Source of the DNA: Streptomonospora litoralis
Lineage (GTDB): Bacteria > Actinomycetota > Actinomycetes > Streptosporangiales > Streptosporangiaceae
Reading direction: 5' to 3'
DNA length: 64,000 bases
Assembly: GCF_004323735.1 (NCBI RefSeq)
Contig: NZ_CP036455.1
Span: forward strand, 2,165,101-2,229,100
The position numbers and the translations under genes are program-made. Of the stretch, positions 4,813 to 57,765 are shown piece by piece; position 1 is the stretch's first letter, and the number at the start of each line of letters is the position of its first letter. Under the pieces are notes generated by a model. That model made no database searches, was not told where the DNA came from, and saw only the letters and a list, made by a program, of their open reading frames with translations.

Positions 4813-5511
4813 GGTAGCGGGCGGGTGCGTCGGCTGGTGTTCGGCGGGGGCGACGGGAGGTTTGCACGGAAATGTGGCACCGAGGTGGCGGGTAGTCGGG
4901 CCTGAGCCCATCGGTTCGGGTGCTCGCCGGTGGCCCGCCTGACGGGGGCGGCCTCCGGCCCGCGCGGGCCCGGCCACAACACGGCGACACCACGCCGGCC
5001 CACCGGCGCCGGTATGTCCGGTATGCCGGTCCATCCGGCGATGATCGCGAACTTATGGCCGAGGAATGCGCTTTCCTGCGACCATAAGTTCACGATAGAC
5101 GGGCCAAGCCGCGCCCAACGCAGGGTTGCGACCAGACAGCGGCCGTAATCCGGTGGAAACCGCGCGTTGGATGCGCCGACCGGCCTGCGGCGGCCCAACG
5201 CCGCTCCCGCCGCAACCGCCACCGGCGAGCACCCGACCCGTCGACCGCGGGCCGGACCCGGCGCCGTCCTCGCTGCCCGTCGTTCCCGTCAGGTCACCCG
5301 CATCCCGGCCGACCAACAAGGCCGCACAGCCAACCCGAGCCGCCCCGCCGCACGCGCCACCCGCGAGCACCCGACCCGACAACCGCAGGCCCAGCCCTTC
5401 GCCGCCTCGTCGGGCGGGCTACCGGCGGGCACCCGGTGCGGTGGGCGCGGGCTGGGCCATCCGCCACCGTTGCCGCCGCCGTTCCCCGTCAGGCCACCCA
5501 CCGGGCCGTGT
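4813..5511. repeat. intergenic repeat island A
   Basis: A 699-bp gap between convergent aldo/keto reductase and sbcC genes, with no credible gene. It holds one copy of the conserved extragenic element (about 4961-5108) with its inverted repeat TCGCGAACTTATGG / CCATAAGTTCACGA (5045-5058 and 5082-5095). Degenerate copies of the ~138-bp GC-rich unit flank it. The unit core GGGTGCTCGCCGGTGG is exact at 4918-4933 on + and at 5219-5234 on -, with weaker copies near 5358 and 5435. A stretch at 5108-5190 is also shared, in inverse orientation, with 57424-57510 of island C. Confidence 0.8.
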
Positions 5512-8500
5512 TCATCCCGTCTGGTGGAGGCTGGAACCCGTCGCGGTCTTGGCCACGCGCAGGCGGGTGGTGATCCGGGTGCGGAGGTCGGCGACGTGGC
5601 TGACGACGCCGACGGCGCGGCCGCCGTCGCGGAGGGAGTCGAGGACCTCCAGGACCTCCTCCAGGGTGTCCTCGTCCAGGGTGCCGAAGCCCTCGTCGAT
5701 GAAGAGGGTGTTGATCTCACTGCCCCCCGCGCCTTGCGTGGCGACGTCGCCGAGGCCGAGGGCCAGGGCCAGGGACGCCACGAAGGTCTCGCCGCCCGAC
5801 AGGGTGGCGGGGTCGCGCTCCTGTCCGGTCCAGCCGTCCAGGACGCGCAGACCCAGCCCGCCGCCCGAGCGCGACCGGTCGCCCGCGGCCTTGTCCACGG
5901 TGTGGCGGAGCTCGTAGCGCCCGGCGGCCATCGTGGCCAGCCGATCGTTGGCGGCGGCCACCACCTGCTCCAGGCGGGCGGCCAGCACGTAGGCCGACAG
6001 CCGCACGTTCTCCCGGTTGTCGGCCGCGGTTCCCGCCGCGAGCCGGGCCAGGCCGTCGGCGACGCTGTGCCGGTGGCGGGCCGGACGCGAGGCGGAGAGC
6101 AGGTCCTCCAGGCCGTGCCGCAGTTCGGCCAGGCGGTCCGCCTGATCGGCGAAGCGGTCGCGCCAGCGCAGGGCGTGGTCGGCGGCGTCCGCGGCGCGCT
6201 CGGCAGCCGCGGTCAGTCCCGCCACGTCCGGTGCGGGCAGCGAGCCGGCCGCCGCCAGGCCGGGGTCGTCGAGGATCTCGCGGACGCGGGCCGCCTCGTC
6301 GTCGTGGGCGCGGATCTTCTCGTGCAGCGCGCGGCGGTCCGCGTCGCCGCGCTCGGCGGCCCGCACCTGATGGGAACCGCTGAAACCGGCCCCGGTCGCG
6401 GCGGCGTGTGCCTCGTGCTCGGCGGCGCGCAGCTCCTCGGCCGCACCGGCGCGGTCGTCGAGCGCCCGCACCGCCGCCGTGAGCAGCTCGGCCTCCTCGC
6501 TCAGCCTGCCGATGCGCGTGGCCAGGTCGGGGTCTGGGCCCCGTGCGGTGTCGAGCTTATCGGCGAGCCGTGCGGCCTCGGCGGCCCGCGTCTCGCGGAC
6601 CTTGTCCAGTTCGGCGATCTCGCGGGTCAGCTCCGACTCATCGGTGCGCGTTTTCTCGACCTGTGTGTCGATCCGCTCCAGATCGGCGGCGAGCCGCTCG
6701 ACCTCGACCGCGGCGGCGTCGACGCGCTCCAGCTCCGCCCGCCGCCGGTCGAGCAGTTCGGTGGCGGCGTCCCCGCTCATGCCCCCGGTGCCGTCCTGGG
6801 CCGCGTCCAGGCGCGCCTGGACCTCGGCGACCGCGTTCTCGGCGGCGGTGCGCTCCTCGTCGGCCTTCGCGGCGGCCTCGGCGGCCGTCTCCTCGTCTGC
6901 CGGGGAAGGCCGGTCGGCGGCGCCGACAGCGGGTTCCGGGTGCTCGGCCGACCCGCACACCGGGCACGCCTCGCCCGCCTCCAGTCGCTCGGCCAGCTCG
7001 GCCGCCATGCCCTCGATGCGGGCCCCGCGGATCTCCTGCAACCGGTCGCGGGCCGCCTGCGCGGCGTCGACCCGGCTGCGCCGCCGCTCCTGCGCCCCCG
7101 CCAGTTCGCCGGCGAGCCGGTGTGCCGCCTGCACCGACTCCTCCCGGGTGCGGGCGAATTCGAGCGCGGCCTCGGCGCTATCGCGCGATCCCGTCCGGCC
7201 GCGGGCCTCCTCCAGTTCGGCGGCGACGCGGGCGCGCCGCTCCGGCAGTGCGGCGGCCTGCTCCCGGCACGCGCCGAGGTCGCGCTGCGCCCGTGCCGTC
7301 TGGGCCTCCGCGCGCTCGACATCCTCGTGCACGGACCGCAGGTGGTCGGCATCGCCGCGCAGTTGCTCCAGGCGGGCGGCCTCGTCGCGCCGGTCGCGCT
7401 CGGCCGCGGCGAGCGCCTCGCGCCGGCGGTCCGGCGTCTCGGAGCCGCCCTGTTCCGCGGCGCCGTCCGTGTCGCCGCCGAGCGCGGAGGCGGGATCGTC
7501 CAGCAGCCCGAGCCGCTCGGCCGCGGCCAGGTCGCCGTCCTCCGCCAAGCCGGGTGATCCGGGCGAGGAGGGGTCGCCGGGCCCGTCCGCCGCCGCGTCC
7601 CCGTCCGCGCCTGCGGCCGCGCTCCCGTCCTCGCCCGCGGCCGCGAGCGCGCGCACCAGCCTCAGCCGCTCGGCCGCAGCGAGGTCGGCCTTCTCCAGTC
7701 GGGTGCGGCGGTCCTCGGCGCTGCGGACCAGCGGCATGACCGCGGCCGCGCGCTCGGCCGCCTCCAGCTCCTCCTGCAGCGCCGCCCGCCGGGGCGCCTG
7801 CTCGGCGAGGTCGCCTTCGCGGCGCAGCGCTTCGGCGCGTCGCTGCCGGCGCTGTTCCAGCTCGCGGCCCTCCTGCAGCGCGCCGCGGGCCGCGTCGCGC
7901 TCGCGCACGGCCGCATCGGCCGCCTGGGCGGTGTCGTCCGCCGTAGCGGCCGCGACCGAGGCCAGCTCGGCCGCCCACGGCGCCAGCGCCTCCAGGTCCT
8001 CGGCGCCCCGCGCGGAGTTCGCCTCCGGCCGGGCCGAGCGGCCGACCTCGGCGATCAGGCCGGCTTTTCGGGTGACCTCCGACTCGGCGCGCTCGGCCTC
8101 CTGGCGGCGCTCGTTCGCATGGTCGGCCAGCCACTCCTCGACCTGGGCGAACACCCCGGTGGCGAAGATGCGCTCCAAGCCGGCCCGCCGCTCTTTGGCG
8201 TCGGCGCGCAGGAACCGCGCGAAGTCGCCCTGGGGCAGCAGCACGATCTGGCAGAACTGGGCGAGAGACAGCCCGAGCACGTCGTCCACCAGCTGCCCGG
8301 CCTCGTCGGGCCGGTTGGTCAGGCCGTTCCACGAGCCGTCGGCGAATTCCCGGACGACGACCTTGGCCTTCTCCTCGGTGGTGCCCTTCCCGCGTTTCTT
8401 GGGCCGCTGCCAGGCGGGGCTGCGCAAGATGTGCAGCCGCCGCCCGCGCACGGTCAGCTCCAGCGTGACCTCGGGAGCGGTGCCGGAGGCGGCGTGGTTG

Positions 8501-8703
8501 CTGCGCGGCGACCGCGCCGCCTCGCGCACGCCGGGCACGCGGCCGTAGAGCGCGAAGCACACCGCGTCCAGCACCGAGGTCTTGCCCGCGCCGGTGGGGC
8601 CGTGGATCAGGAACAGGCCGCCGTCGCCGAGGCGGTCGAAGTCGACGGTCTCGGTGTCGGCGAAGGGGCCGAAGGCCCGGACGGTGAGGGTGTGCAGGCG
8701 CAT
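5512..8703 (-). CDS. sbcC: exonuclease subunit SbcC
   Basis: A 1063-residue SMC-like ATPase subunit of the SbcCD (Mre11-Rad50 type) nuclease, which processes hairpins and DNA ends. The N-terminal Walker A is HGPTGAGKTSVLDAV (residues ~34-48). Long Ala/Glu/Arg-rich coiled coils flank the zinc hook CPVCGSAEHP at about residue 578. The C-terminal ABC signature is TLSGGETFVASLALALG, followed by Walker B INTLFIDEGFGTLDED and the H-loop VGVVSHVADL. The start ATG shares one base with the sbcD stop (TGATG), giving translational coupling. The length is usual for actinobacterial SbcC. It ends directly beside repeat island A. Confidence 0.97.
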   Translation of the reverse strand: MRLHTLTVRAFGPFADTETVDFDRLGDGGLFLIHGPTGAGKTSVLDAVCFALYGRVPGVREAARSPRSNHAASGTAPEVTLELTVRGRRLHILRSPAWQRPKKRGKGTTEEKAKVVVREFADGSWNGLTNRPDEAGQLVDDVLGLSLAQFCQIVLLPQGDFARFLRADAKERRAGLERIFATGVFAQVEEWLADHANERRQEAERAESEVTRKAGLIAEVGRSARPEANSARGAEDLEALAPWAAELASVAAATADDTAQAADAAVRERDAARGALQEGRELEQRRQRRAEALRREGDLAEQAPRRAALQEELEAAERAAAVMPLVRSAEDRRTRLEKADLAAAERLRLVRALAAAGEDGSAAAGADGDAAADGPGDPSSPGSPGLAEDGDLAAAERLGLLDDPASALGGDTDGAAEQGGSETPDRRREALAAAERDRRDEAARLEQLRGDADHLRSVHEDVERAEAQTARAQRDLGACREQAAALPERRARVAAELEEARGRTGSRDSAEAALEFARTREESVQAAHRLAGELAGAQERRRSRVDAAQAARDRLQEIRGARIEGMAAELAERLEAGEACPVCGSAEHPEPAVGAADRPSPADEETAAEAAAKADEERTAAENAVAEVQARLDAAQDGTGGMSGDAATELLDRRRAELERVDAAAVEVERLAADLERIDTQVEKTRTDESELTREIAELDKVRETRAAEAARLADKLDTARGPDPDLATRIGRLSEEAELLTAAVRALDDRAGAAEELRAAEHEAHAAATGAGFSGSHQVRAAERGDADRRALHEKIRAHDDEAARVREILDDPGLAAAGSLPAPDVAGLTAAAERAADAADHALRWRDRFADQADRLAELRHGLEDLLSASRPARHRHSVADGLARLAAGTAADNRENVRLSAYVLAARLEQVVAAANDRLATMAAGRYELRHTVDKAAGDRSRSGGGLGLRVLDGWTGQERDPATLSGGETFVASLALALGLGDVATQGAGGSEINTLFIDEGFGTLDEDTLEEVLEVLDSLRDGGRAVGVVSHVADLRTRITTRLRVAKTATGSSLHQTG

Positions 8704-9854
8704 CAGCGGGCGGCCTCCCTGCGGCGGATGTCTTCGAAGGCGGCGGATACGAGGTCGCGCTCCGCGCCGGTGGCGGGCTCGCCGCGCGCCCAGTCGACGA
8801 AGTCCAGCACCAGGTCGGACTCGGAGCGGTCGGCCGTGCGCCGCGACCAGCTGCGGTCGTCCTCGGGGCGGCGGTCGTCGGGGGCGAAGTCGAGCACCAG
8901 GGTGTGCGGGAACCGTTCACGCAGCCGGTCCATCGGGAAGGCCGGGCGCAGCGGGTCGGTGAGGGTGACCTGCAGCCAGTGGCCGGTGTAGCGCTCCCAG
9001 CGCTCGCCGGTGAGCAGGTCGTCGATGCGGCCGCTGATGCGGGCGACCGGGCGCGGCACCGGGGCTTCGGCGAACTCGGCGGAGGCGAGCCCCGCCGGGC
9101 CGAGGTCGACGATCCAGCAGCCTTTGACCTGGTGCTCCTCGGAGAAGGAGTAGGCCAGCGGCGAGCCGGAGTAGCGCACGGACTCGGCCATGGTCTGGCG
9201 GCCGTGCAGGTGGCCCAGCGCGGTGTAGTCGGTGCCCGCGAACACCGGCAGCGGAACGTGCGAGGCGCCGCCGACGGAGATGTCGCGTTCGCTGTCGGAG
9301 GGCTCGCCGCCGCTGACGAAGGCGTGGGAGAGCACCACCGAGCGGGTACCGGGCGGGCGCGCGGCGAGGTCGGCGCGCACGCGCTCCATCGCGTGGCTCA
9401 GCACCGCCGTGTGGCCGCGCTCGTCGAGCCCCCAGTGCGGGCGGGCGATCTCGGGTTCCAGGTAGGGGATGCCGTAGAAGGCGACCGGGCCGTGGTCGTC
9501 GTCGATCAGCACCGGCGAGCCGACGGACTCCAGGGAGGAGCGCAGGTGGATGCCGGAGGCGTCGATGAGGTCGGTGGCGTAGTCGAGGCGGGCCATGGAG
9601 TCGTGGTTGCCGCTGATCAGCACCGCCCGCGCGCCGGTGTCGCGGATGCGGCGCAGCGCCTCGCCGAACAGCCGCACGGCGTCCACGGGCGGCAGGGCGC
9701 GGTCGTAGAGGTCGCCGGCGACCGCGACGACGTCGATGCGCTCCGTGCGGACGGTGTCGACGAGGTGGTCGACGAACGCCGCCTGGGCGTCGATGAGGTT
9801 CTCGCGGTGGAAGGAGCGTCCCAGATGCCAGTCGGAGGTGTGCAAGAGGCGCAT
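8703..9854 (-). CDS. sbcD: exonuclease subunit SbcD
   Basis: A 383-residue Mre11-type metallophosphoesterase, the nuclease subunit partnering SbcC. Dimetal-site motifs appear in order: DWHLGRSFH near the N-terminus, VVAVAGDLYDRALPP, LISGNHDSMARLD and YTALGHLHGRQTM. The C-terminal cap (SbcD_C) region follows. The first gene of a two-gene operon, its stop overlaps the sbcC start by one base. A TACTCT box ends 8 nt before the ATG, so the message may be leaderless. Role: SbcCD removes cruciforms and blocked DNA ends. This may matter in a genome with the palindromic repeats described here, but that link is only inference. Confidence 0.97.
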   Translation of the reverse strand: MRLLHTSDWHLGRSFHRENLIDAQAAFVDHLVDTVRTERIDVVAVAGDLYDRALPPVDAVRLFGEALRRIRDTGARAVLISGNHDSMARLDYATDLIDASGIHLRSSLESVGSPVLIDDDHGPVAFYGIPYLEPEIARPHWGLDERGHTAVLSHAMERVRADLAARPPGTRSVVLSHAFVSGGEPSDSERDISVGGASHVPLPVFAGTDYTALGHLHGRQTMAESVRYSGSPLAYSFSEEHQVKGCWIVDLGPAGLASAEFAEAPVPRPVARISGRIDDLLTGERWERYTGHWLQVTLTDPLRPAFPMDRLRERFPHTLVLDFAPDDRRPEDDRSWSRRTADRSESDLVLDFVDWARGEPATGAERDLVSAAFEDIRRREAAR

Positions 9855-9862
9855 GTTCCGGC

Positions 9863-9868
9863 AGAGTA
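9863..9868 (-). promoter_or_regulatory. candidate -10 box for sbcD
   Basis: TACTCT on the minus strand, ending 8 nt before the sbcD ATG at 9854. The spacing matches a leaderless transcript start. No clear ribosome-binding site is present. Confidence 0.4.
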
Positions 9869-10139
9869 CTGGAGTCGGCCGCGGTTGCGCAGTGGTTCGG
9901 GGCGCTGCTGTGGACAGTCGGAGCTCCAGGAGGGCGCTCGCCGTCGGGCCTGCGGTCTCGGGGCATGCCGGTGCGGGGGCTCCGGGGGAACCCCTTATCT
10001 CAAGTCAAGCCGGTAAGGACCGCCCCGCGCCACCCCGATCTCCCCCTGGTGGACGACCGTGGCGCGCAAGCGGCCCCGCCGCGGCCCGGGGCGGGCTCGG
10101 GCGGCGCCGCCCCCCGCCGCGCCGAGCCCCCGCGCCGCC

Positions 10140-10802
10140 TCAGTCCCGCTTGCGCGCCATGGTCAGACCGTCGCCCACCGGCAGCAGCACCAGCTCGGTG
10201 CGCTCGTCGGCCAGGGCGTGGTCGTTGAAGTCGCGGATGCCCTGCACCGCCGCGGAGTCCTCGGCCGGGTCGATGACGCGGCCGTGGGAGAGGGTGTTGT
10301 CCACCAGCAGCACGCCGCCCGGGCGCATGCGCGGCACGAGTTCGTCCCAGTAGCCGATGTAGCCCTCCTTGTCGGCGTCGATGAAGGCCAGGTCGAAGCG
10401 CGTCTCGGGGGAAAGCGCGCGCAGCGACTCCAGTGCCGGGCCGATGCGCAGGTCGACCTTGTGCGCGATCCCATCGCGCTCCCAGTAGCGCCGCGCGAGG
10501 GAGGTCCACTCCTCGCTGATGTCCAGGGCCAGCAGCGTGCCGTCGTCGGGGATGCCGCGCGCCATGCAGATCGCGGAGTAGCCGGTGAAGGTGCCGACCT
10601 CCACGACGTCGCGGGCGCCGGCGATGCGGGCGAGCAGGGTCATGAACGTGCCCTGCTCCGGCCCGATCTGCATCGTCGTCAGGTCGGGGTAGAGCCGCGC
10701 GGTCTCCTCGGCGAGGTCGGCCAGCACCGGGTCGACCGGGGCGCCGTGGGCCACCAGGTAGTCGTGCAGTTCCGGGGTGAGGGATTCCGAAGTCCGAGTC
10801 AC
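10140..10802 (-). CDS. class I SAM-dependent O-methyltransferase
   Basis: A 220-residue enzyme of the cation-dependent catechol/caffeoyl-CoA O-methyltransferase family (Methyltransf_3). Visible: MQIGPEQGTFMTLLARI, the SAM-binding motif VVEVGTFTGYSAICMARG, the acidic cofactor strand LLALDISEEW, and the metal-binding FDLAFIDADKEGYIGYWDEL followed by GGVLLVDNTLSHGRV. The GTG at 10802 is chosen because TAGAGT ends 7 nt before it; GTG 10811 is a possible alternative. The family is widespread in mycobacteria and streptomycetes, usually as a lone gene as here. The methyl acceptor is unknown. Confidence 0.93.
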   Translation of the reverse strand: MTRTSESLTPELHDYLVAHGAPVDPVLADLAEETARLYPDLTTMQIGPEQGTFMTLLARIAGARDVVEVGTFTGYSAICMARGIPDDGTLLALDISEEWTSLARRYWERDGIAHKVDLRIGPALESLRALSPETRFDLAFIDADKEGYIGYWDELVPRMRPGGVLLVDNTLSHGRVIDPAEDSAAVQGIRDFNDHALADERTELVLLPVGDGLTMARKRD

Positions 10803-10809
10803 GCGCGCC

Positions 10810-10815
10810 ACTCTA
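10810..10815 (-). promoter_or_regulatory. candidate -10 box for O-methyltransferase gene
   Basis: TAGAGT on the minus strand with 7 nt to the GTG at 10802, the spacing of a leaderless start. This decides the chosen start codon. Confidence 0.45.
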
Positions 10816-10936
10816 GTCGCGGCGGGCCCGGCTGTCCCGGCGGCGCGGGCGCGTGCGGAGCCGGGCCGCGACGCCGCCCCCCGCCGCCCCCCGCTGGCCC
10901 GCGCTGTCCTCGGGCGCCGGGCGGTTGGGGCACGCC

Positions 10937-11650
10937 TCACGCCTGCGGCAGCAGCTCCGGCCACGGGAACAGGTAGAAGGAGAGCAGCAGTATGGCGATC
11001 GTCAGACCCGGTGTGACGATGTTCCGCTCGACCTTGCCGTCGGTGGTGAACCCGATGTTCCGCCCGAAGCGGTACTTCGAGGCCGGCCACAGCAGCGGTA
11101 CGCCGAGCTCGGTGGCCATGTCGCCCGCGAAGTGCAGCAGGCAGCCGAACGCGACCGCGACGCCGATCCAGGCGTAGTTGACCCCGGAGGCGTAAAGGGC
11201 CAGCGTGACGGCGGCCGTGCCCATCGCGTTTATGACCTCGGAGGCCAGGCGGTTCTTGTCGTTGCCCAGTCCCAGCCCGTTGAAGGCGATGCCGAGGAGC
11301 AGGAACACGAAGATCTGCACGGCCAGCTCCGACCACAGCGCCAGAGCCTGGGTCAGCCCGCCCATCAGCAGCGCGAACAGCAGGGAGTGGGTGCCGTTGC
11401 GGTGGCCGCCGAAAATCCAGTTGAAGGCGGCGCTCAGCCCGCGGGTGACGACCCCGTAGGTCTGGGTGATGGTGGAGCTCTTGGCGTCCAGGTCGGGGAT
11501 GAGGGCGGCCCCCGCGCACACCAGCGAGCCGGCGACGATCTCCCCGGGGCCGAGGTCGAATCGCAGTCCGAAGAATTCGTGTCCGTCGAGGAGCGGTACT
11601 ACCGCCATCCAACCGACTATGCCGCTGAGCGCGTGCGCGTGCCCCATCAT
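10937..11650 (-). CDS. DUF457-type membrane metal-dependent hydrolase (YdjM-like)
   Basis: A 237-residue membrane protein of the LexA-binding inner-membrane hydrolase family (YdjM/DUF457). Typical motifs: MMGHAHALSGIVGW at the start, AALIPDLDAKSSTI, the HRNGTHSLLFALLMGG metal-site region and LLHFAGDMATELGVPLLWP. About five to six transmembrane segments are visible. ATG 11650 is preferred over the immediately following ATG because TACGGT ends 7 nt upstream. The family has conserved His/Asp residues that suggest a zinc hydrolase, but no substrate is established. It is divergent from the peptide ABC operon. Confidence 0.88.
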   Translation of the reverse strand: MMGHAHALSGIVGWMAVVPLLDGHEFFGLRFDLGPGEIVAGSLVCAGAALIPDLDAKSSTITQTYGVVTRGLSAAFNWIFGGHRNGTHSLLFALLMGGLTQALALWSELAVQIFVFLLLGIAFNGLGLGNDKNRLASEVINAMGTAAVTLALYASGVNYAWIGVAVAFGCLLHFAGDMATELGVPLLWPASKYRFGRNIGFTTDGKVERNIVTPGLTIAILLLSFYLFPWPELLPQA

Positions 11651-11657
11651 GGGCGGA

Positions 11658-11663
11658 ACCGTA
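11658..11663 (-). promoter_or_regulatory. candidate -10 box for DUF457-type gene
   Basis: TACGGT on the minus strand, 7 nt before ATG 11650, consistent with a leaderless message. Confidence 0.4.
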
Positions 11664-11898
11664 GCGGTTGGCGGTATTTCAAGCGAATCAGCTCCGGTTT
11701 TCGGCAGCGGCCCGAACCGCGCGCCCGGCGGCCGGTGCAAACGCGCTGCCCGCGCCCCCTTGTCCGGTCGTCCGGTTCCGACTCGGCGCGCGGCCCGGCG
11801 CGGATTCGAAGACCGACGTCGCACGCGGGCTCCGCCCTTGGCGGCGGAATCCCTGCCGCCCCGTCGTGGACCGCGCGGGACGCACGCGGTGTAAATCG

Positions 11899-11928
11899 TT
11901 GACGCTGTTCTGTGCATGCTGGTAAACA
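11899..11928 (+). promoter_or_regulatory. candidate promoter of the peptide ABC operon
   Basis: TTGACG (11899-11904) and TAAACA (11923-11928) separated by 18 bp, about 75 bp before the substrate-binding protein ATG. The surroundings are locally AT-richer. This is a sigma-70-like match by eye; a transcription start has not been shown. Confidence 0.35.
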
Positions 11929-12004
11929 ACCAACTACGCCATGCGTCACGATCCCTGTACACCCCGTCGTCCCCCGCACCGCAACCTGAGGGGTTGACCA
12001 GCAC

Positions 12005-40202: not shown

Positions 40203-40920
40203 TTCCGGCGCGCGACCGTCGGCACGCGGGGCCCGCCGGTGGCGGTGGTGGTCGGCGGGGGCGGCTTCGATCTGCTGGGCGGCCTTGTTGGTCTGCCGGG
40301 TGGCGGGTGACCTGGAGGAAACAGCGGCGGCGAGGGTGCCGGATGGCTGGGCCCGCGGTTGTCGGGTCGGGTGCTCGCCGGTGGCCCGTCCGGCGGGGGC
40401 GGCCTCGGTCTGCTGGGCGGCCTTGTTGGTCTGCCGGGTGGCGGGTGACCTGGAGGAAACAGCGGCGGCGAGGGTGCCGGATGGCTGGGCCCGCGCCCAT
40501 CGGTTCGGGTGCTCGCCGGTGGCCCGCCCGACGGGGGCGGCGAGGACGGCGGTGGGCCGGGCCGTGCGGGCGCCCGCGACCGCGCCGCGCCGTGCAGCCC
40601 CCGGCCGGTGCGGGCCTGGTCGGAACACGGCGGTACCCAGCCGGCGAGCCGGTGCCGGTATGTCCGGTATGCCGGTTCATCCGGCGATGATCGTGATCTT
40701 ATGGCCGCGGAATGCGCTTACCAGTGGCCATAAGTTCACGATAGATGGGCCAAGCGGCGCGCGGGCCCAGCCATCCGGCGTCCTCGGCGCCGCTTTTTCC
40801 TCCAGGTCACCCGCTTCCCGGCAGGCCAGCAAGGCCGCACAGCAGACCGCCCCCCCGCCGCCGCAGCCGACGCCCCCGCCCACTCGTTCGGCAGGAGGAA
40901 CGCAGGAACGTGGCGAAGTA
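40203..40920. repeat. intergenic repeat island B with 138-bp tandem repeat
   Basis: A 718-bp gap between convergent genes. A tandem repeat of exact 138-bp period covers about 40255-40560: GGCCTTGTTGGTCTGCCGGG is identical at 40281-40300 and 40419-40438, and GGGTGCTCGCCGGTGG at 40369-40384 and 40507-40522. It is followed by a copy of the conserved extragenic element (about 40562-40755) with its inverted repeat TCGTGATCTTATGGCC / GGCCATAAGTTCACGA (40691-40706, 40726-40741). A further degenerate unit in inverse orientation lies near 40760-40860. No gene is supported. Confidence 0.85.
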
Positions 40921-50707: not shown

Positions 50708-51626
50708 ACATCCCACCATATGCCCCGGCCGGAACTCGGGCGATGTCGGATAGGGCACCGGAAAGCTCCGGTCGCCGGAAGGAATAACCCTCGGTGAGGA
50801 GGCGTTCGGGCACCACCCGCTGGCTGACGAGCGCGGCCTCGTCGGCGAAGCCGCCCAGCGCCGCGCGCATGGCGAAGCCGGGAACCGCCAGCACCGCGGG
50901 TCGGCGCACCGCCCGCGCGACCGCCCGGGTGTAGTCGGCGTTGGTCACCGGCTCCGGCGCGGCCAGGTTCACGGGGCCGGTGATGCCGGGCCGCTCCAGC
51001 AGGAACCGCAGCGCGTGCACCTCGTCCTCCAACGCGATCCGGGAGACGTACTGGCGCCCGTCGCCCAGCCGCGCTCCCAGCCCGAGCCGGAACAGCGGCA
51101 GCAGCGTGCCCAGCAGGCCGCCCGAGCGCGCCAGCACGACGCCGGTGCGCGCATGCGCCACCGCGATCCCGGCCTCCTCGGCCGGGGCGGCGGCCCCCTC
51201 CCAGTCGTCGACCAGTTCGGCCAGGAAGCCGCGCCCGCGGGGACCGTCCTCGCCGGTGCGCGCGGCGCCGGTGTCGCCGTAGAACCCCACCGCCGAGCCG
51301 GACACCAGACGCGGGGGCGGCGCGTCCATCCCGGCCAGCGCATCGGCCAGGGTGCGGGTGCCCTGTACGCGACTGTCCCGCAGCAGCCGCTTGTAGCGGC
51401 GTGTCCAGCGCGCCGGGCCGAGCGGCGCGCCCGCCAGGTGCACGACGGCGTCGGCGCCGGCGAGGCGGCCGGTGTCCACGTACCCGCTGGAGGGGCGCCA
51501 CTCGATCTCGGCCATGTCGTGTGCGGGGCGCCGGACCATGCGCTGCACCTCGTGGCCGTCGGCGGTGAGGGAGCGGGCCAGGGCGCCGCCGATGAGTCCG
51601 GAGGCTCCGGTGATCGCGACTCGCAT
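50700..51626 (-). CDS. TIGR01777-family NAD-dependent epimerase-like protein
   Basis: A 308-residue extended SDR-type protein (YfcH/SULA-like). The cofactor motif MRVAITGASGLIGGALARSL opens the protein. LAGADAVVHLAGAPLGPARW, RLVSGSAVGFYGDTGAA, the substrate-domain LLPLFRLGLGARLGDGRQYV and the C-terminal DUF1731 segment RVVPERLLTEGYSFRRPELS follow. The physiological reaction is unknown. It precedes and overlaps lipB on the same strand, an arrangement I recall from other actinomycetes. A TAGCCC box lies close upstream of ATG 51626. Confidence 0.92.
   Translation of the reverse strand: MRVAITGASGLIGGALARSLTADGHEVQRMVRRPAHDMAEIEWRPSSGYVDTGRLAGADAVVHLAGAPLGPARWTRRYKRLLRDSRVQGTRTLADALAGMDAPPPRLVSGSAVGFYGDTGAARTGEDGPRGRGFLAELVDDWEGAAAPAEEAGIAVAHARTGVVLARSGGLLGTLLPLFRLGLGARLGDGRQYVSRIALEDEVHALRFLLERPGITGPVNLAAPEPVTNADYTRAVARAVRRPAVLAVPGFAMRAALGGFADEAALVSQRVVPERLLTEGYSFRRPELSGALSDIARVPAGAYGGMYE
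50715..50720 (-). promoter_or_regulatory. candidate -10 box for lipB
   Basis: TATGGT on the minus strand inside the TIGR01777 gene, 7 nt before ATG 50707. Confidence 0.4.
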
Positions 51627-51805
51627 GGTGCAGGGCTACCCGGCTCGACGCGTGCCACTCCCGCCGACCGCCTCAGCGGCGCGGCCCCCGGGTCCTCGCA
51701 GGCATGCGGGTCCCGGCGCGGGCTCGGCCGCGGCCGCCGGCGGTTCCGCGCAATCTTCGGTGGCCGGTTTCCGCCAAACGGCTGCGCGGGGTACCCGGTG
51801 GGCAA

Positions 51806-51975
51806 TACCGTTGTGTCAGGAGCGAGGGACTCAACGTAATCGCGGAGTCCCCGCCTCCGAGGCGGCGTACGTCCGGACGCCGCCGACGCAGACCTTTGGT
51901 GATGGGGATCACCAGGGGGATGGTGAATGGTGGGGTAAAAGCGGGGCGGTACCCGGTCTCGGGTACCGCCCCGTC
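51806..51975 (+). ncRNA. candidate multi-hairpin small RNA
   Basis: TACCGT at 51806-51811 could be a -10, giving a start near 51818. Next come stems GGGACTC/GAGTCCC (51826-51832, 51845-51851), GGCGGCGT/ACGCCGCC (51861-51868, 51877-51884) and TGGTGAT/ATCACCA around GGGG (51897-51914), and the terminator hairpin at 51943-51972. An alternative stem CCGCCTC/GAGGCGG (51851-51865) competes with the first two. No plus-strand gene follows, so a free ~155-nt transcript is more likely than a leader. Minus-strand origin cannot be excluded. Confidence 0.4.
51943..51972 (-). terminator. sucB terminator
   Basis: A perfect 12-bp inverted repeat GGGGCGGTACCC / GGGTACCGCCCC with a 6-nt loop. On the minus strand it is followed by GCTTTTACC, a short T-run, 53 bp after the sucB stop. 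It may also end the plus-strand RNA candidate. Confidence 0.75.
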
Positions 51976-52024
51976 CGCATAAGCCGCCCGAACCGCCCGG
52001 GCCGCGTCCGCCTCCCGCGGGTGC

Positions 52025-53536
52025 TCAGGCCAGGCCCACCTCGGCCTCGAACGCACCCTCCTCGATGCGCTCGCGCACGTCCTGCAGGAACCGCGCCGCG
52101 TCGGCGCTGTCGATCAGCCGGTGGTCGTGCGTCAGCGCCAGGTACATCATGGAGCGGACCGCGATCACCTCGCCCAGCTCGGGGTCGTCGACCACGACCG
52201 GGCGCTTCACCACGGCGCCGGTGCTGAGGATGCCGACCTGCGGCTGGTTGATGATCGGGGTGTTGAACAGGGCACCGACGTCGCCGGTGTCGGCGAGGGT
52301 GAAGGTGCCGCCGCTGAGCTCGTCGGGGCTCAGACTGCCCGTGTGCGCCCGCTCGCTGAGGTCGGCGATCTTGCGCGCCAGGCCGCCCAGGTTGAGGTCT
52401 CCGGCGTCCTTGACGACGGGCACGAGCAGGCCCGGCTCGGTGTCGACCGAGATCCCCAGGTTCTCGATGCTGTGGTAGGTGACCTCGTAGCTGCTGCTGT
52501 CGATGACCGCGTTGAGCTTGGGATGGGCCTTCAGCGCCTCGACCGTGGCCAGCGCGAAGAAGGGGAAGAAACCCAGCTCCACGCTCTCGCGCTCCTCGAA
52601 CTGCGCGGCGGCCCGCTCGCGCAGCCGGGCGACGGTGGTGACGTCGACCTCGACGACCTGGGTCACCTCGGCGGAGATCCGCAGCGACTCGGCCATCTGG
52701 TCGGCGATGGTCTGGCGCAGGCGCGACATGGTCTCCGTGGTGCCGCGCAGCTTGGTGTCGGCGGCCACGGAGCGGCTGGTGCGGGCGGGAGCGGGAGCGG
52801 CCGTGCCGCCGCCGGGGGCGGGGGCCTCGCGGCGCTTGCGGGCGGCGTCCTGCACGTCCTGCTTGCGAATGCGCCCGCCGACGCCGGTGCCCTGCACCGA
52901 GCCGAGGTCGACGCCCTCCTGGGCGGCGAGCTTGCGCACGAGCGGCGTCACGTAAGCCTCGGTGACGGCGTCGGTGCCCGCGGAGCGGCCGGAGCCGCTG
53001 AGTGTTTCGACGTCCACCGGCGGGGTGACGTCCTCGCGGCTGGGGCGGGGCTCGGCCTGCTGCGGTTCCCGCTTCGGGGCGGGCTGCTGCGCCCGGGGCT
53101 GCTGCTCGCGCGGTGTCTCGGTCTCGGCGGCGGGCTGCGGTGCGGGCTCGGGTTCCGGCTCGGGTTCGGGTTCCGGCTCCGGCGCGCGCTCCTCGGCCTG
53201 GGGCGCCGTGCTCTCGGCCGGGTCGGAGGCGGGCTCCTCGGGAGTGGGGGCCGGAGGCTGCGCCGCGCCGCCCTGGCCGGACTCGGCGGCGCCCTCCTCC
53301 TCCCCGCCGATGATCGCGATCTCCGCGCCGATCTCCACGGTCTCGTCCTCGGAGACGAGGATCTTGCTCAGTACCCCCGCCGCGGGGGAGGGGATCTCGG
53401 TGTCGACCTTGTCGGTCGAGACCTCCAGAAGGGGCTCGTCGACCTCGACGGTGTCACCCTCCTGCTTCAGCCACTGGGTGACCGTGCCCTCGGTGACGCT
53501 TTCGCCCAGCTCGGGCATTGAAACGGAAGTCGGCAT
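52025..53536 (-). CDS. sucB: 2-oxoglutarate dehydrogenase E2 (dihydrolipoamide succinyltransferase)
   Basis: A 503-residue E2 acyltransferase. A single lipoyl domain carries Lys43 (EVSTDKVDTEIPSP). A long disordered linker with an (EP)n run (EPEPEPEPEPEPAPQP) follows. The peripheral-subunit-binding domain is TPLVRKLAAQEGVDLGSVQG, then GRIRKQDVQDAAR. The catalytic domain ends with ALTHDHRLIDSADAARFLQD (His and Asp of the active site). Actinobacterial SucB and pyruvate E2 are hard to tell apart; sucB is the common call for this neighbourhood. It follows lpdA by 76 bp and ends before a strong terminator. LipA/LipB next door supply its cofactor. Confidence 0.92.
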   Translation of the reverse strand: MPTSVSMPELGESVTEGTVTQWLKQEGDTVEVDEPLLEVSTDKVDTEIPSPAAGVLSKILVSEDETVEIGAEIAIIGGEEEGAAESGQGGAAQPPAPTPEEPASDPAESTAPQAEERAPEPEPEPEPEPEPAPQPAAETETPREQQPRAQQPAPKREPQQAEPRPSREDVTPPVDVETLSGSGRSAGTDAVTEAYVTPLVRKLAAQEGVDLGSVQGTGVGGRIRKQDVQDAARKRREAPAPGGGTAAPAPARTSRSVAADTKLRGTTETMSRLRQTIADQMAESLRISAEVTQVVEVDVTTVARLRERAAAQFEERESVELGFFPFFALATVEALKAHPKLNAVIDSSSYEVTYHSIENLGISVDTEPGLLVPVVKDAGDLNLGGLARKIADLSERAHTGSLSPDELSGGTFTLADTGDVGALFNTPIINQPQVGILSTGAVVKRPVVVDDPELGEVIAVRSMMYLALTHDHRLIDSADAARFLQDVRERIEEGAFEAEVGLA

Positions 53537-53612
53537 GATTCCTCTTAAACGACAAGTGCGGACGCGGGGAAAGAAAAACGGGGCGGGCTGTTTCCGCCCG
53601 CCCCGCATCGCC

Positions 53613-54989
53613 TCACTCGTGGACGTGCAGCGGCTTTCCGGCCAGTGCGAGGTGCGCCTCGCCCAGTGCCTCCGACTGCGTCGGGTGCGGGTGCACGAGC
53701 TGGGCCACTTCGGAGGGCAGCGCCTCCCAGTTGTAGATGAGTTGGCCCTCGGCGGTCAGCTCGCCCACGCGCGAGCCGATCATGTGCACGCCCAGGACGG
53801 GGCCGTCCTTCTGCGCGATGACCTTCACCGAACCCTGCGTCTGCAGGATCTGGCTCTTGCCGTTGCCGCCGAGGTTGTAGTCGAGCTCGACGATCTCGTA
53901 GCCGCGCTCCTTGGCCTTGGCGGAGGTCAGCCCCACCGAGGCGACCTCCGGCTCGGAGTAGGTGATGCGCGGGACGCCGTCGTAGTCGATGGCCGGCGGG
54001 TTGAGCCCGGCGAGCTGCTCGGCGACGTAGATGCCCTCGGCGAAGCCGGCGTGGGCGAGCTGCAGCGTGGGGATGAGGTCGCCGACGGCGTAGATGTTGC
54101 CGACACCGGTGTGCAGGTTCTCGTCGACCTCGACGAACCCGCGCTCCATGCGGATGCCGTTGTCCTCGTAGCCCAGGCCCTCCGAGACCGGGGCGCGGCC
54201 GATGGCCACCAGCAGCACCTCGGCCTCCAGCGTCTTGCCGCCCTGCAGGGTCACGCTGACGCCGGAGTCGGTGGTCTTGACGCTCTCGAAGGGGGTTTCG
54301 AGCTCGTACTTGATGCCGCGCTTGCGGAAGGCCCGCTCCAGCTGCTTGGAGGTGGACTCGTCCTCCAGCGGAAGCAGATGCGGCAGCGCCTCGATGATCG
54401 TGACCTCGGAGCCGTACGAGCGGTAGACGCTGGCGAACTCGACGCCGATGACGCCGCCGCCCAGCACCGCCACCGACTTGGGCACCCGCTCCATGGTCAG
54501 GGCCTGCTCGCTGGTGATGACCTTCTCGCCGTCGATGTCCAGGCCCAGGGTCTTGGGCTCCGAACCGCTCGCCAGCAGGATGTTGGTGCCCTTGTAGACG
54601 GTGTCGCCGACGGTGACCTCGTCGCGCCCGGTGAGCCGGCCCTCGCCCTCGACCACGGTGATGCCGTGCGACTTGATCAGGCCGGTCAGCCCGCGGAACA
54701 TGCGGCTGACGACCTTGTCCTTGTAGGCGTTGACGCCCGCCATGTCGATGCCGTCGAAGCTGGCCTTGACCCCGAAGGTCTCCGAGTCCCGCGCGGCGTC
54801 GGCAACCTCGGCCGAGTGCAGCAGCGCCTTCGTGGGGATGCAGCCGACGTGCAGGCAGGTGCCCCCGAGCTTGTTCTTCTCGATCAGGGCGACCTTCATG
54901 CCCAGCTCGGAGGCGCGGATGGCGGCGGCGTAGCCACCGCTGCCGGCTCCCAGGATCACCAGGTCGAAGGTGCCGCCGTTCTCACTCAC
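53613..54989 (-). CDS. lpdA: dihydrolipoyl dehydrogenase (E3)
   Basis: A 458-residue FAD disulfide oxidoreductase that reoxidises dihydrolipoyl groups of 2-oxoacid dehydrogenases. The FAD site is LVILGAGSGGYAAAIRASEL. The redox disulfide is Cys45/Cys50 (GGTCLHVGCIPTKALLHS). The NAD site is SVAVLGGGVIGVEFASVYRS, with a late NIYAVGDLIPTLQLAHAGFA, and the C-terminal catalytic His-Glu pair is VHPHPTQSEALGEAHLAL. The GTG start has AAGGAGTGTCC upstream. It lies between pepA and sucB on one strand, probably one transcription unit. Confidence 0.97.
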   Translation of the reverse strand: MSENGGTFDLVILGAGSGGYAAAIRASELGMKVALIEKNKLGGTCLHVGCIPTKALLHSAEVADAARDSETFGVKASFDGIDMAGVNAYKDKVVSRMFRGLTGLIKSHGITVVEGEGRLTGRDEVTVGDTVYKGTNILLASGSEPKTLGLDIDGEKVITSEQALTMERVPKSVAVLGGGVIGVEFASVYRSYGSEVTIIEALPHLLPLEDESTSKQLERAFRKRGIKYELETPFESVKTTDSGVSVTLQGGKTLEAEVLLVAIGRAPVSEGLGYEDNGIRMERGFVEVDENLHTGVGNIYAVGDLIPTLQLAHAGFAEGIYVAEQLAGLNPPAIDYDGVPRITYSEPEVASVGLTSAKAKERGYEIVELDYNLGGNGKSQILQTQGSVKVIAQKDGPVLGVHMIGSRVGELTAEGQLIYNWEALPSEVAQLVHPHPTQSEALGEAHLALAGKPLHVHE

Positions 54990-55082
54990 GGGAAGGACAC
55001 TCCTTGATGTGGATGTGAATGTTCGTCTGGATCGGACGCGTCCGCGCGGCCGGGCCGGATGGTGCCCGGCCGCGGCAGCTGT

Positions 55083-56597
55083 TCAGTTCTCGCGTGCGGA
55101 GGTGTTCGCGGCGTTCTCCGCGATCCGCACCAGCGTGCGGGTGGCGGCACCGGTGCCGCCCTTCGGGGTGTAGCCGAAGGGCCGGCCCTGGTTGAACGAG
55201 GGGCCTGCGATGTCCAGATGCGCCCAGTGCACGCCCTCATCGATGAACTCCTTGAGGAACACGCCGGCGCTGAGCATGCCGCCCCAGCGCTCGCCCGGGA
55301 CGTTGGCGATGTCGGCGACGGTGGAGTCCAGGCCCTGGCGCAGCTCTGCGGGAAGCGGCATGGGCCAGCTCTGCTCGCCGGCGGCGGTCGCGGCGGCGTG
55401 GACGTCCTCGCGTACGCCGTCGTCGTTGGCCATTACGGCGAACACCCGGGTGCCCAGCGCGACCAGCTGCGCACCCGTCAGCGTGGCCACGTCCACGATC
55501 AGGTCGGGGGAGTCCTCTTGGGCGCGCACCAGCGCGTCGGCCATGACCAGGCGGCCCTCGGCGTCGGTGTTGAGGACCTCCACGGTCTTGCCGCCGTAGA
55601 TGGTCAGCACGTCGGAGGGGCGCTGGGCGCTGCCGCCGGGCATGTTCTCGGCGATGGCGAGGTAGGCCACGGCGTTGACGGCCGGGCCCAGCTGCGCGAT
55701 GGCGCGCATGGCGCCCAGTACGGCGGCCGCGCCGCCCATGTCGGACTTCATCCAGTCCATGGACCCGGCCGGCTTCAGCGAAAGGCCACCGGAGTCGAAG
55801 GTGATGCCCTTGCCCACGAACGCGATTGTGCGGCGGGCCTCGGGATGGGTGTACTCCAGGCGCACCAGGCGGGGCGGGTTCGCCGAGCCCTGGCCGACGC
55901 CGATGAGCCCGCCGTAGCCGCCGTCGGAGAGTTCCTGCTCGTCGAGGACCTGCACGCTCAGGCCGTCACCGCGTCCGACCTCGGCGGCGATGTTCGCCAG
56001 GTCCTCGGGCACGAGGTCGGCGGGGGCGGTGTTCACCAGATCGCGGGTGAGGGAGACGGCTCCGGCGATGGTGCCGGCGCGCTCGACGGCCTCCCGCGCT
56101 CCGGGGACGCCGGCGGCCACCAGCAGTTCGGCGGCGGGAGAACGGACGTCCTCGTCGGTGCGGTAGCGGTTGAAGGCGTAGTCGCCCAGCAGCGCACCCA
56201 GGGCGGCGGCCTCGGCCAGTTCGGGGGTTTCGGCGGGCAGTGCCAGCGCGATGCGGTGCTGCGCGGTGCCGCGCGAGCGCAGCGCCGCGCCGGCGGCGCG
56301 GGCGACGGCGTCGGGATCGGGGGCGGCACCGGCGCCCGGCGGGGCGCCCAGGCCGACCGCGACGACCACGGGTGCGTTCAGCGCGCCCTGCGTGGGGACG
56401 CTGTGCACCTCCTCGGCGGCGCCGGTCGCACCCAGCAGCGACAGCGTCTTGGCCAGGCCGCCGGGGAAGGCGGCGTCGACGGTCTCGGCGCCCGACGCGG
56501 GCTGGGGTCCGTCGTCCGCCGCATGGTAGCCGACCACCACCGCGTCGACGTCGAGCGAACCGGGGGATTCCGTAATAACTGACAACGACGTGCTCAC
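55083..56597 (-). CDS. pepA: leucyl aminopeptidase (M17)
   Basis: A 504-residue hexameric zinc/manganese aminopeptidase (PepA/LAP), cytosolic. The N-terminal macro-like domain begins SLSVITESPGSLDVDAVVVG. The catalytic domain has FVGKGITFDSGGLSLKPAGS (metal Lys and Asp), MDWMKSDMGGAAAVLGAMRA and the family signature VLNTDAEGRLVMADALVRAQ. In E. coli PepA also binds DNA, which has not been tested here. GTG 56597 is 7 nt after TAGCAT, so a leaderless message is likely. A 20-bp palindrome covers its -35 region. lpdA follows after 93 bp. Confidence 0.96.
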   Translation of the reverse strand: MSTSLSVITESPGSLDVDAVVVGYHAADDGPQPASGAETVDAAFPGGLAKTLSLLGATGAAEEVHSVPTQGALNAPVVVAVGLGAPPGAGAAPDPDAVARAAGAALRSRGTAQHRIALALPAETPELAEAAALGALLGDYAFNRYRTDEDVRSPAAELLVAAGVPGAREAVERAGTIAGAVSLTRDLVNTAPADLVPEDLANIAAEVGRGDGLSVQVLDEQELSDGGYGGLIGVGQGSANPPRLVRLEYTHPEARRTIAFVGKGITFDSGGLSLKPAGSMDWMKSDMGGAAAVLGAMRAIAQLGPAVNAVAYLAIAENMPGGSAQRPSDVLTIYGGKTVEVLNTDAEGRLVMADALVRAQEDSPDLIVDVATLTGAQLVALGTRVFAVMANDDGVREDVHAAATAAGEQSWPMPLPAELRQGLDSTVADIANVPGERWGGMLSAGVFLKEFIDEGVHWAHLDIAGPSFNQGRPFGYTPKGGTGAATRTLVRIAENAANTSAREN

Positions 56598-56604
56598 GCA
56601 CCCG

Positions 56605-56610
56605 ATGCTA
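56605..56610 (-). promoter_or_regulatory. candidate -10 box for pepA
   Basis: TAGCAT on the minus strand, 7 nt before GTG 56597; leaderless spacing. Confidence 0.45.
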
Positions 56611-56618
56611 GCCCTTGT

Positions 56619-56638
56619 GACGTGCCCCCGGGCACGTC
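56619..56638. promoter_or_regulatory. 20-bp palindrome upstream of pepA
   Basis: GACGTGCCC-CC-GGGCACGTC, a perfect 9-bp inverted repeat centred about 20 bp upstream of the pepA -10, overlapping the -35 position. A repressor operator is likely; the regulator is unknown. Confidence 0.5.
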
Positions 56639-57517
56639 GCCCGCGGCGTGGCAGCGCATGCGGAAAAGAACCGCGTCCCTCGACGCGGTCCGGCGACAGT
56701 CACGGTCTTCCGCCCGCAGCGGAGCCCGACACGCTGCGCCGCTCACGAAACGCGCGCCCTTCGCCACTGCCGCCGCCGAGCCGCCAACCCCAGGTCGGCG
56801 GCGCCAGCGGCTCGGGTGCGGGGACGCTCAAGGCTGCAGCGGGTGTCCGCGGCCGTGCCGCCGGACGAGTCACCAGGTCAGGCGGTCCCGATCGGGGAGG
56901 GTAACGGCCGTGGGTGTGAATAAATGTGACGATGCCAACATGTGGTACCCGTCGGCTGGCGGCTGGGGTCTGCTGGGCGGCCTTGTTGGTCTGCCGGGTG
57001 GCGGGTGGTCGTCACTGGAAATGCGGCGAGGGTGGCGGTGGGTGGCGCCCGCGGTTACCGGTTCGGGTGCTCGCCGGTGGCGGCGGCCAGCGGGGTGGGT
57101 CGGTTCCGCTGGGCGGCATTGTGGTCTGCCGGGTAGCCGGTCGCCTGACGGGGAACGGCGGGCACCGAGGGCGGCGGGTGGCCTTACCGAAAAGCGGCGC
57201 CGAGGGCGGCGGTGGGCCGGGCCTGCGGTCGTCGGGTCGGGTGCCCGCCGGTGACGGCGGTCGGCGGGGCGGCGGGTCGGGTCCGCTGGGCGGCCTTGTT
57301 GGTCGGCCGGGCGGCGGGTGGCCTGACGGGGAACGACGGGCAGCGAGGACCGCGCCGGGTCCGGCCCGCGGTCGACGGGTCGGGTGCCCGCCGGTGGCGG
57401 CGGCCGACGAGAGCGAAGTTCGGCGGCCGCAGGCCGGTCGGCGCATCTAATGCGCGGTTTCACCGGATTCCGACCGCTCTTTGGTCGAAACCCTGCGCTG
57501 GGCGACACCGGTCCCAT

Positions 57518-57573
57518 CGAGTCTGTCTGCACAGTTAGATTCGGCGCCGAATCCGTCCCTGCAGACAGACTCG
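57518..57573. repeat. 56-bp palindrome-ended insertion
   Basis: Perfect 14-bp terminal inverted repeats CGAGTCTGTCTGCA (57518-57531) and TGCAGACAGACTCG (57560-57573). They enclose a 16-bp perfect palindrome GATTCGGCGCCGAATC (57538-57553). The sequence is absent from the matching place in island A. No target duplication is evident. Confidence 0.75.
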
Positions 57574-57579
57574 GCGGGG

Positions 57580-57765
57580 CTTGTCCCGTCTATCGTGGAC
57601 TTATGGTCGCCGGGAAGCGCATGCCGTGACCATAAGTTCACGATCATCGCCGGGTGAACCGGCATACCGGACATACCGGCGCCGGTTCGCCGACCGGGTC
57701 TCGCCGTGTTCCGACCGGGCCCGCGCCGGCCGGAACAGGCGGCGGGCGCGGTCGCGGATGCTCGC
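57580..57765 (-). repeat. conserved extragenic element, copy C
   Basis: Inverse copy of the element at 4961-5108 and 40562-40755. Its arms are TCGTGGACTTATGGTC (57593-57608) and GACCATAAGTTCACGA (57628-57643), with one mismatch and a 19-nt loop. The ACATACCGG/CATACCGG motifs follow. Confidence 0.8.

What the first reader, a model, noticed from the sequence alone, without database searches (positions are those of the whole stretch)
4961..57765. Conserved 145-190 bp extragenic element present three times
Copies lie at 4961-5108 (+), 40562-40755 (+) and 57580-57765 (-). They share GGTATGTCCGGTATGCCGG, then CATCCGGCGATGATCG, then an inverted repeat of 14-16 bp (GTGAACTTATGG / CCATAAGTTCAC) around a 19-23 nt loop containing GCGCAT or ATGCGC, then ATAGACGGG. 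Copies B and C also share ~50 bp upstream (GGTCGGAACACGGCG). None is in a gene. Conservation of the stem with different loops suggests selection at the RNA or DNA-structure level, or a mobile palindromic family. I know of no named family with this core.
Basis: seen in the sequence. Interest (0 to 1): 0.75.

Follow-up and report, generated by a model that had tools for sequence, protein, structure and literature searches.

The report
Long mosaic transposon-derived repeats between genes
The three repeats are fragments of a larger, species-specific family of non-coding DNA, most likely mobile-DNA remnants, that sits mostly behind the ends of genes in an actinomycete bacterium; the kind of element is known, but its large mirror-image, tandem-repeat build is unusual.

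Summary
The three copies are real and are the centre of something larger. Their palindrome (16-bp arms, 23-bp spacer) recurs roughly 80-90 times in the 5.72-Mb chromosome, inside mosaic blocks of strict design: inward-pointing tandem arms of a ~138-bp unit (M2; 298 of 298 inward) around a cassette L-U-K-T-V in fixed order. A minority of block sides (42 of 180 not chosen for it; 3 of 28 in an unselected stretch) keep ends like [A/G]GCCGTGTTTAAGAA, preceded by TA in 26 of 46 (background 1%). A congener and another genus carry ~1.03-kb IS5-family insertion sequences with near-matching ends and TA flanks; no such transposase was found in this genome. Best reading: long MITE-like non-autonomous IS5-family elements, their mover lost, later mosaicised by recombination. 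TA-centred YTAR sites are nearly absent from genes here (11 of 138), which could place the elements behind stop codons. Arms are better conserved than flanks, but pairs do not covary beyond shuffles, so RNA-structure selection is unsupported. The window copies lack recognisable ends; their assignment rests on shared modules. Organism: inferred Streptomonospora litoralis. A new variant of a known kind.

The parts
4848..5502 (+). Block A (mosaic element as far as modules are recognised), between convergent aldo/keto reductase and SbcC-like genes; outer ends not recognisable
   Evidence: profile matches to modules; flanking genes
4848..4942 (+). Block A, left M2 arm unit, inward
   Evidence: nhmmer 50 bits
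4948..5006 (+). Block A, partial module U
   Evidence: nhmmer 28 bits
5011..5114 (+). Block A, core module K with palindrome 5043-5097
   Evidence: nhmmer 117 bits; arms; RNA fold z -4.3 and -6.7
5112..5187 (+). Block A, module V (no T module found)
   Evidence: nhmmer 61 bits
5213..5502 (-). Block A, three right M2 arm units, inward
   Evidence: nhmmer 76, 31, 43 bits
40273..40844 (+). Block B, between convergent DUF11-protein and TetR-type genes; outer ends not recognisable
   Evidence: module matches; flanking genes; G004 and G005 have under 100 bp between aligned gene ends here
40273..40532 (+). Block B, two tandem left M2 units (138-bp period), inward
   Evidence: nhmmer 89 and 92 bits; unit length
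40557..40651 (+). Block B, module U
   Evidence: nhmmer 61 bits
40657..40760 (+). Block B, core module K with palindrome 40689-40743
   Evidence: nhmmer 107 bits
40759..40844 (-). Block B, right M2 unit, inward
   Evidence: nhmmer 58 bits
56971..58412 (-). Block C, 3' of the cobS gene; cassette in minus orientation; outer ends not recognisable
   Evidence: module matches; no module match at the syntenic place in G004 and G005
56971..57407 (+). Block C, four tandem left M2 units, inward
   Evidence: nhmmer 76, 27, 59, 70 bits
57430..57531 (-). Block C, module V
   Evidence: nhmmer 85 bits
57518..57573 (.). Block C, module T (palindromic)
   Evidence: nhmmer on both strands, 27 and 34 bits; within inverted repeat I7
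57575..57677 (-). Block C, core module K with palindrome 57591-57645
   Evidence: nhmmer 105 bits
57682..57825 (-). Block C, module U
   Evidence: nhmmer 86 bits
57838..58050 (-). Block C, module L
   Evidence: nhmmer 200 bits
58221..58412 (-). Block C, two right M2 units, inward
   Evidence: nhmmer 29 and 83 bits

Best explanation
The copies are internal pieces of a species-specific family of long, non-coding, MITE-like elements of the IS5 family. Full design: terminal repeat > (M2)0-5 > [L-U-K-T-V] < (M2)0-5 < terminal repeat, with TA at the target. Shown: the module order and inward polarity; IS5-like ends beside TA at a minority of block sides; IS5 insertion sequences with near-matching ends in relatives; no such transposase found in this genome; no K module in the sister stretches read. 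Inferred: an IS5-type transposase once moved these elements in trans; its target YTAR, nearly absent from coding sequence here, steered them to stop codons and intergenic gaps; once the transposase was gone, copies diverged, gained or lost arm units and exchanged segments by homologous recombination. The K palindrome is a sequence-conserved internal module; a role as a protein site used in amplification is a guess. No current host function is shown.
For: M2 units: 298 of 298 in clusters with cassette modules point inward; 38 of 38 in the unselected 264 kb. Cassette order L-U-V unbroken in 59 of 59 clusters that hold at least two of the three. End profile score >=10 at 57 of 198 cluster sides, opposite-strand control 0; leaving out eight stretches fetched because of their ends, 42 of 180; in the unselected 264 kb 3 of 28. 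TA before 40 of 61 ends scoring >=8, 26 of 46 without the end-chosen stretches, TA background 0.99%; TA on both sides in 13 of 22 two-ended elements, 7 of 15 without the end-chosen stretches. G004: five 1034-bp IS copies with TA on both sides in 5 of 5, proteins 99-100% identical, NF033580 transposase. G023, another genus: five end pairs spanning 1037 bp including the TAs; the one read encodes a 321-aa NF033580 transposase. Compact elements of 217 bp (M2-like filling) and 377 bp (M2-U-K by eye), both TA-bounded. YTAR: 138 sites in 264 kb, 109 intergenic, 18 in stop codons, 11 coding, although 77% is coding. M2 pattern 272 in own genome; 0, 0, 2, 1, 0 in five congeners. G005 has 283- and 330-bp elements with related ends and TA on both sides.
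Against: Most block sides have no recognisable end, none of the six in the window (best score 5.5), and only 3 of 28 in the unselected stretch. In 14 of 40 TA ends the junction stop closes a coding-like frame, but a plain open-frame count is only modestly better than the other frames (100 codons or more: 21 against 14 and 10). Nearly identical copies inspected do not end at these ends but at scattered points. No clean empty site with a single TA was found: at the one TA-bounded element tested, four of four sister orthologues lack it, but ~1.2 kb beyond is inverted relative to two of them and absent at that place in the other two. Typical bacterial MITEs are shorter (recalled). The arms' conservation is not explained by this reading.
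Confidence: 0.74

Rival explanations
1. Functional bidirectional 3'-end elements: blocks act as transcription terminators, insulators or mRNA 3' stabilisers between genes, with inward M2 units read in sense by transcription entering from either side and K as the barrier hairpin.
For: Of 91 blocks with two neighbours called, 36 lie between convergent genes and 7 between divergent ones (background 135 and 124); median gap to a gene 3' end 43-56 bp, to a 5' end 220-281 bp. K folds better than shuffles on both strands. Arms conserved above flanks.
Against: Target-site bias plus selection against promoter damage gives the same distribution. One M2 unit tested does not fold better than shuffles (z 0.35 and -0.10). 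No covariation. No U-tract terminator in A; one in the stretch around C, about as many as in shuffles. G004 and G005 do without the block at B and C, G004 at A.
Confidence: 0.13
2. REP/BIME-type elements moved by a REP-associated tyrosine (Y1) transposase; K would be a REP palindrome.
For: Extragenic palindromes, mosaic build and 3'-end location resemble REPs and BIMEs; 11 of 80 K copies have CGTC before the stem; CGTC-tagged REPs exist (PMC3733652, passages read). One full Y1 transposase match in this genome.
Against: CGTC in only 11 of 80 copies; palindrome 55 bp rather than 20-40; the nearest K among the places listed or sampled is about 19 kb from the Y1 gene; the ends found are IS5-type with TA.
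Confidence: 0.04
3. K is a second, nested palindromic MITE (terminal repeats = the 16-bp arms, TA at both ends in older copies) that landed in the larger element before it spread. This is compatible with the best explanation.
For: Right arm ends in A in 75 of 76 copies, left arm begins with T in 20 of 76; one copy (C1:2314087) loses flank similarity at the left arm (by eye).
Against: No empty site for the 26-base joined pattern at up to 6 mismatches in the sample; the first 20 hits printed for a shorter pattern look like chance. The arm pattern is in no relative other than the own genome among 60 searched at 1 mismatch.
Confidence: 0.2

Closest known systems
[quoted passage not shown]
   Same: Non-coding, ends shared with IS5-family elements, TA-type target, high copy number, extragenic
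   Different: Median 872 bp and up to 1932 bp in the sample; arms built of tandem 138-bp units; no IS5 transposase found in this genome
Foldback elements of eukaryotes (recalled; a Mutator/Foldback family and Galileo were seen only in a search listing)
   Same: Long inverted arms made of tandem subrepeats of variable number around a variable centre (recalled)
   Different: Bacterial, IS5-type ends; no sequence comparison made
BrickBuilt MITE of Porphyromonas gingivalis (PMC4596501, abstract and outline read)
   Same: Bacterial, intergenic MITE containing a tandem repeat
   Different: 23-nucleotide repeat with inverted-repeat ends, not inverted twin arrays as far as the abstract tells; 19 copies; other phylum
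REP/BIME elements, GTAG- and CGTC-tagged palindromes (PMC3733652, passages read)
   Same: Extragenic palindromes near gene 3' ends, mostly in convergent and same-strand gaps
   Different: Units 20-40 bp; CGTC in only 11 of 80 K copies; the word 'actinobacteria' does not occur in that paper's text

Membership tests
IS5-family MITE | Terminal inverted repeats matching an IS5-family element | tested here: met
   Met for part of the family: 42 of 180 sides outside end-chosen stretches, 3 of 28 in the unselected stretch, 0 of 6 in the window; IS5 with near-matching ends in G004 and G023
IS5-family MITE | Target duplication (TA) | tested here: met
   TA before 26 of 46 ends and on both sides in 7 of 15 two-ended elements outside end-chosen stretches; 40 of 61 and 13 of 22 with them
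IS5-family MITE | No coding capacity of its own | tested here: inconclusive
   0 matches in the own genome to the G004 transposase and to PF13340; blocks not searched for other proteins
IS5-family MITE | Mobilisable in trans by an IS5 transposase | not testable with these tools
   needs a transposition assay
IS5-family MITE | Small size (below ~600 bp, recalled) | tested here: not met
   cluster lengths 69-1932 bp, median 872; 217- and 377-bp forms exist. Hence 'MITE-like', not plain MITE
REP element | GTAG or CGTC tag beside a 20-40-bp palindrome | tested here: not met
   CGTC in 11 of 80, CGAT in 55 of 80; palindrome 54-56 bp
Structured RNA family | Covariation of paired positions | tested here: not met
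   Watson-Crick pairing 0.748 against 0.764 in shuffles; compensatory cells 18 against 29.7
Structured RNA family | Match to a described Rfam family | tested here: not met
   0 matches in the window at gathering scores

The most novel reading that the evidence does not exclude
A bacterial foldback class: selfish elements whose inverted arms grow and shrink by tandem units, aimed at stop codons by the scarcity of their target elsewhere, and whose conserved inner palindrome has since become a host-used bidirectional 3'-end boundary or protein-binding site in this species.
Probability: 0.15. Interest if true: 0.7.

Novelty: new variant of a known kind. Interest (0 to 1): 0.45.

Why it matters
If right, it shows how a target preference that is rare in GC-rich coding DNA can place mobile elements behind stop codons without harming genes, a mechanistic alternative to the usual functional reading of 3'-end and convergent-gene repeats. 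It also suggests that bacterial non-autonomous elements can take a foldback-like form with tandem-repeat arms, and that congeners can carry different palindromic fillings behind related ends (seen in two, this genome and G005).

Tried and rejected
RNA structure selection: tested by pair counts and shuffles, not supported. Known RNA family: none in the window. REP with Y1 transposase: one full Y1 match, no K near it among listed or sampled places. M2 as a 3'-UTR element oriented by the adjacent gene: rejected, polarity follows the block. Single arms as ends of an autonomous element: two single-arm loci read and found to be decayed hairpins among other modules. Empty K site: the 26-base joined pattern gave none. 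Clean empty site of a TA-bounded element: not obtained because of rearrangement; at C1:2234034 the sister orthologues G004 and G005 lack the element, but their gene ends do not align to the last residues. Element boundaries from near-identical copies: scattered, taken as recombination. Naming the organism: no match for 20 kb of the second contig in the plasmid collection; later inferred from its 89,998-bp length in a paper. Exact genome contigs pattern: no match, own or near records may be left out there. Literature: I saw no description of these repeats in the listings (open PMC library only; listings, few papers opened).

Full report
Observation. The three copies are at the stated places. 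The arm motif with up to 3 mismatches hits the window six times, the two arms of each copy, against 0.05 expected. In the own genome (5,814,190 bases, two contigs) the arm motif with up to 2 mismatches occurs 81 + 86 times, reversed control 0 + 0. A BLAST with copy C scored 40 of 341 first-look candidates; all 40 gave a match of at least 172 bases at 81-100% identity.

Sampling. Apart from the 264 kb the sample is chosen, so proportions are not genome-wide estimates. It holds 154 of the 167 arm matches and 176 of the 272 M2-pattern matches. Of 86 arm groups in the first sample (up to 3 mismatches) 80 are paired palindromes spanning 54-56 bp.

The larger element. The 30 best-scoring copies align over about 750 bp, with a weaker stretch downstream of K. 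Self-comparison gave 93 repeat blocks, median 924 bp. Profiles of six modules gave 99 clusters in the larger sample, 69-1932 bp, median 872. Each M2 unit in clusters with cassette modules points inward: 148 left plus, 150 right minus, 0 exceptions; six clusters without cassette modules were set aside. Without the end-chosen stretches it is 277 of 277, in the unselected 264 kb 38 of 38. M2 units are tandem, mostly about 138 bp apart and some about 70, 0-5 per side in clusters with K. The order L-U-V is kept in 59 of 59 clusters with at least two of the three; 14 more hold only one kind. Scaling cluster bases by the M2 pattern suggests about 2.2% of the chromosome, a rough figure.

Ends. Beyond M2 lies an end motif, first seen as GCCGTGTTTAAGAACGCCGGTC (25 occurrences at up to 4 mismatches, reversed control 0). 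A 15-base profile of its outer part scored >=10 at 57 of 198 cluster sides, opposite-strand control 0; without the end-chosen stretches 42 of 180, and in the unselected 264 kb 3 of 28. Of ends at >=8, TA precedes 40 of 61, or 26 of 46 without the end-chosen stretches, against 0.99% of dinucleotides. TA stands on both sides in 13 of 22 two-ended elements, or 7 of 15. The profile was made from motif matches in the sample, so scores are partly by construction; the TA was not part of it. The six sides in the window score -6.3 to 5.5, no recognisable end. Compact forms exist: a 217-bp element and a 377-bp element that holds K and begins at a gene's TAG.

The mover. The end pattern at up to 2 mismatches occurs 60 times in the own genome (control 0), 37 in G005 (0), 13 in G004 (1), 3 in G001 (3), 1 in G002 (0) and 0 in G003 (1). 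In G004 five pairs span exactly 1034 bp and bound an insertion sequence with TA on both sides in 5 of 5; its 337-aa frame matches IS5 models (PF13340, PF01609, NF033580 at 249.5 bits, cut-off 110). A sixth G004 copy has an internal stop. Among 120 family genomes the TA-plus-end pattern at 1 mismatch is in five: own 31, G004 12, G005 25, G023 10, G029 1. G023, another genus, has five pairs spanning 1037 bp with the TAs; the one read encodes a 321-aa NF033580 transposase. The own genome has 0 matches to the G004 transposase (28 candidates) and 0 to PF13340 (33 candidates), so the mover is gone or too diverged; G005 has one partial protein match and 0 PF13340.

Why after stop codons. In the 264 kb (73% GC) there are 138 YTAR sites: 109 intergenic, 18 in stop codons, 11 coding, while 77% is coding by my rough gene caller. 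TA plus the first end base makes TAA or TAG in 37 of 40 TA ends. In 14 of 40 that codon closes a coding-like frame (open 50 codons or more with actinomycete codon-position GC); by plain open length of 100 codons it is 21 of 40 against 14 and 10 in the other frames. Blocks with two neighbours called: 36 convergent, 48 same-strand, 7 divergent of 91 (2 of 93 dropped), background 135, 436, 124; median distance to 3' ends 43-56 bp and to 5' ends 220-281 bp. YTAR as the IS5 target is recalled; only the TA is shown here.

Relatives. The K arm pattern at 1 mismatch is in the own genome alone among 60 searched; the M2 pattern in the congeners is 0, 0, 2, 1, 0. The window is syntenic with five congeners as far as contigs reach, with an inversion in two. 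Gaps between aligned gene ends. Site A: 699 bp here; 185, 1611, 754 and 583 bp in G004, G005, G001, G002. Site B: 718 bp; 53, 89 and 283 bp in G004, G005, G001. Site C: 2026 bp; 573 and 605 bp in G004, G005. Profiles of the six modules found only M2 in the sister strings, and only in G005. At site A G005 has M2-like units, one left plus and five right minus, around a different palindrome. G005 also has 283- and 330-bp elements with related ends and TA on both sides; the palindrome was read in two other G005 elements with one recognised end each.

Conservation. Over 76 copies of span 55 (four of 80 dropped for length) mean majority-base conservation is 93.8% and 96.5% in the arms, 87-91% in the inner hairpin and 77-79% in the flanks. 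Watson-Crick pairing over 26 pairs in 58 distinct hairpins is 74.8% against 76.4% in shuffles; compensatory cells 18 against 29.7. One pair (T-A 30, C-G 26, C-A 15, T-G 4) looks covarying but may reflect subfamilies. So sequence, not pairing, is kept. The K of copy A folds well on both strands (z -4.3 and -6.7), one M2 unit does not (0.35, -0.10).

Dynamics. Among 14 listed alignments of >=93% and >=300 bp (two of them the same pair), those inspected end at scattered points, not at the end motif, which speaks for recombination or gene conversion among copies. K copies lie 42 minus and 38 plus.

Organism. GlnE relatives place it near Nocardiopsis and allies (nearest listed: a metagenome bin 80%, Nocardiopsis potens 76%; near records may be left out). 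The second contig is 89,998 bp, the length given for the episome of Streptomonospora litoralis M2 (PMC8448680, passages read); the chromosome length given there differs (5,878,427 against 5,724,192), so the name is an inference.

Verdict. Long MITE-like IS5-family elements, foldback-like in build, a new variant of a known kind. The architecture is firm; the IS5 origin rests on a minority of ends and is indirect for the three window copies.

Noticed in passing
window 59675-60832 (+): 385-aa gene with Cas12f1-like TNB and OrfB_IS605 domains, a TnpB-type protein, about 1.3 kb from block C.
   Followed up: no
window 57518-57573; G005 syntenic string near 44.66-44.74 kb: Module T is palindromic; G005 holds a palindrome of different letters (GAGGGTGTCC...GGACACCCTC) after M2-like units, which might be related (by eye).
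   Followed up: no
L259-L264 (G005): G005 carries IS5-like short elements; in L261 two of them abut with only TA between their ends, and two others (L259, L260) hold a long nested palindrome.
   Followed up: partly
G000:C1 about 5516340-5517550: About 1.2 kb beyond a 377-bp element is inverted relative to G004 and G001 and not at that place in G003 and G002, a possible repeat-linked rearrangement.
   Followed up: no
G000:C1 581-1078 kb: Five very similar K copies (near 581, 607, 647, 700 and 1077 kb) lie within 0.5 Mb, perhaps regional gene conversion.
   Followed up: partly
G003, C1: G003 holds 18 DUF4096 matches, many of them one ~61%-identical IS5 relative in high copy, yet 0 end motifs of this type.
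   Followed up: no
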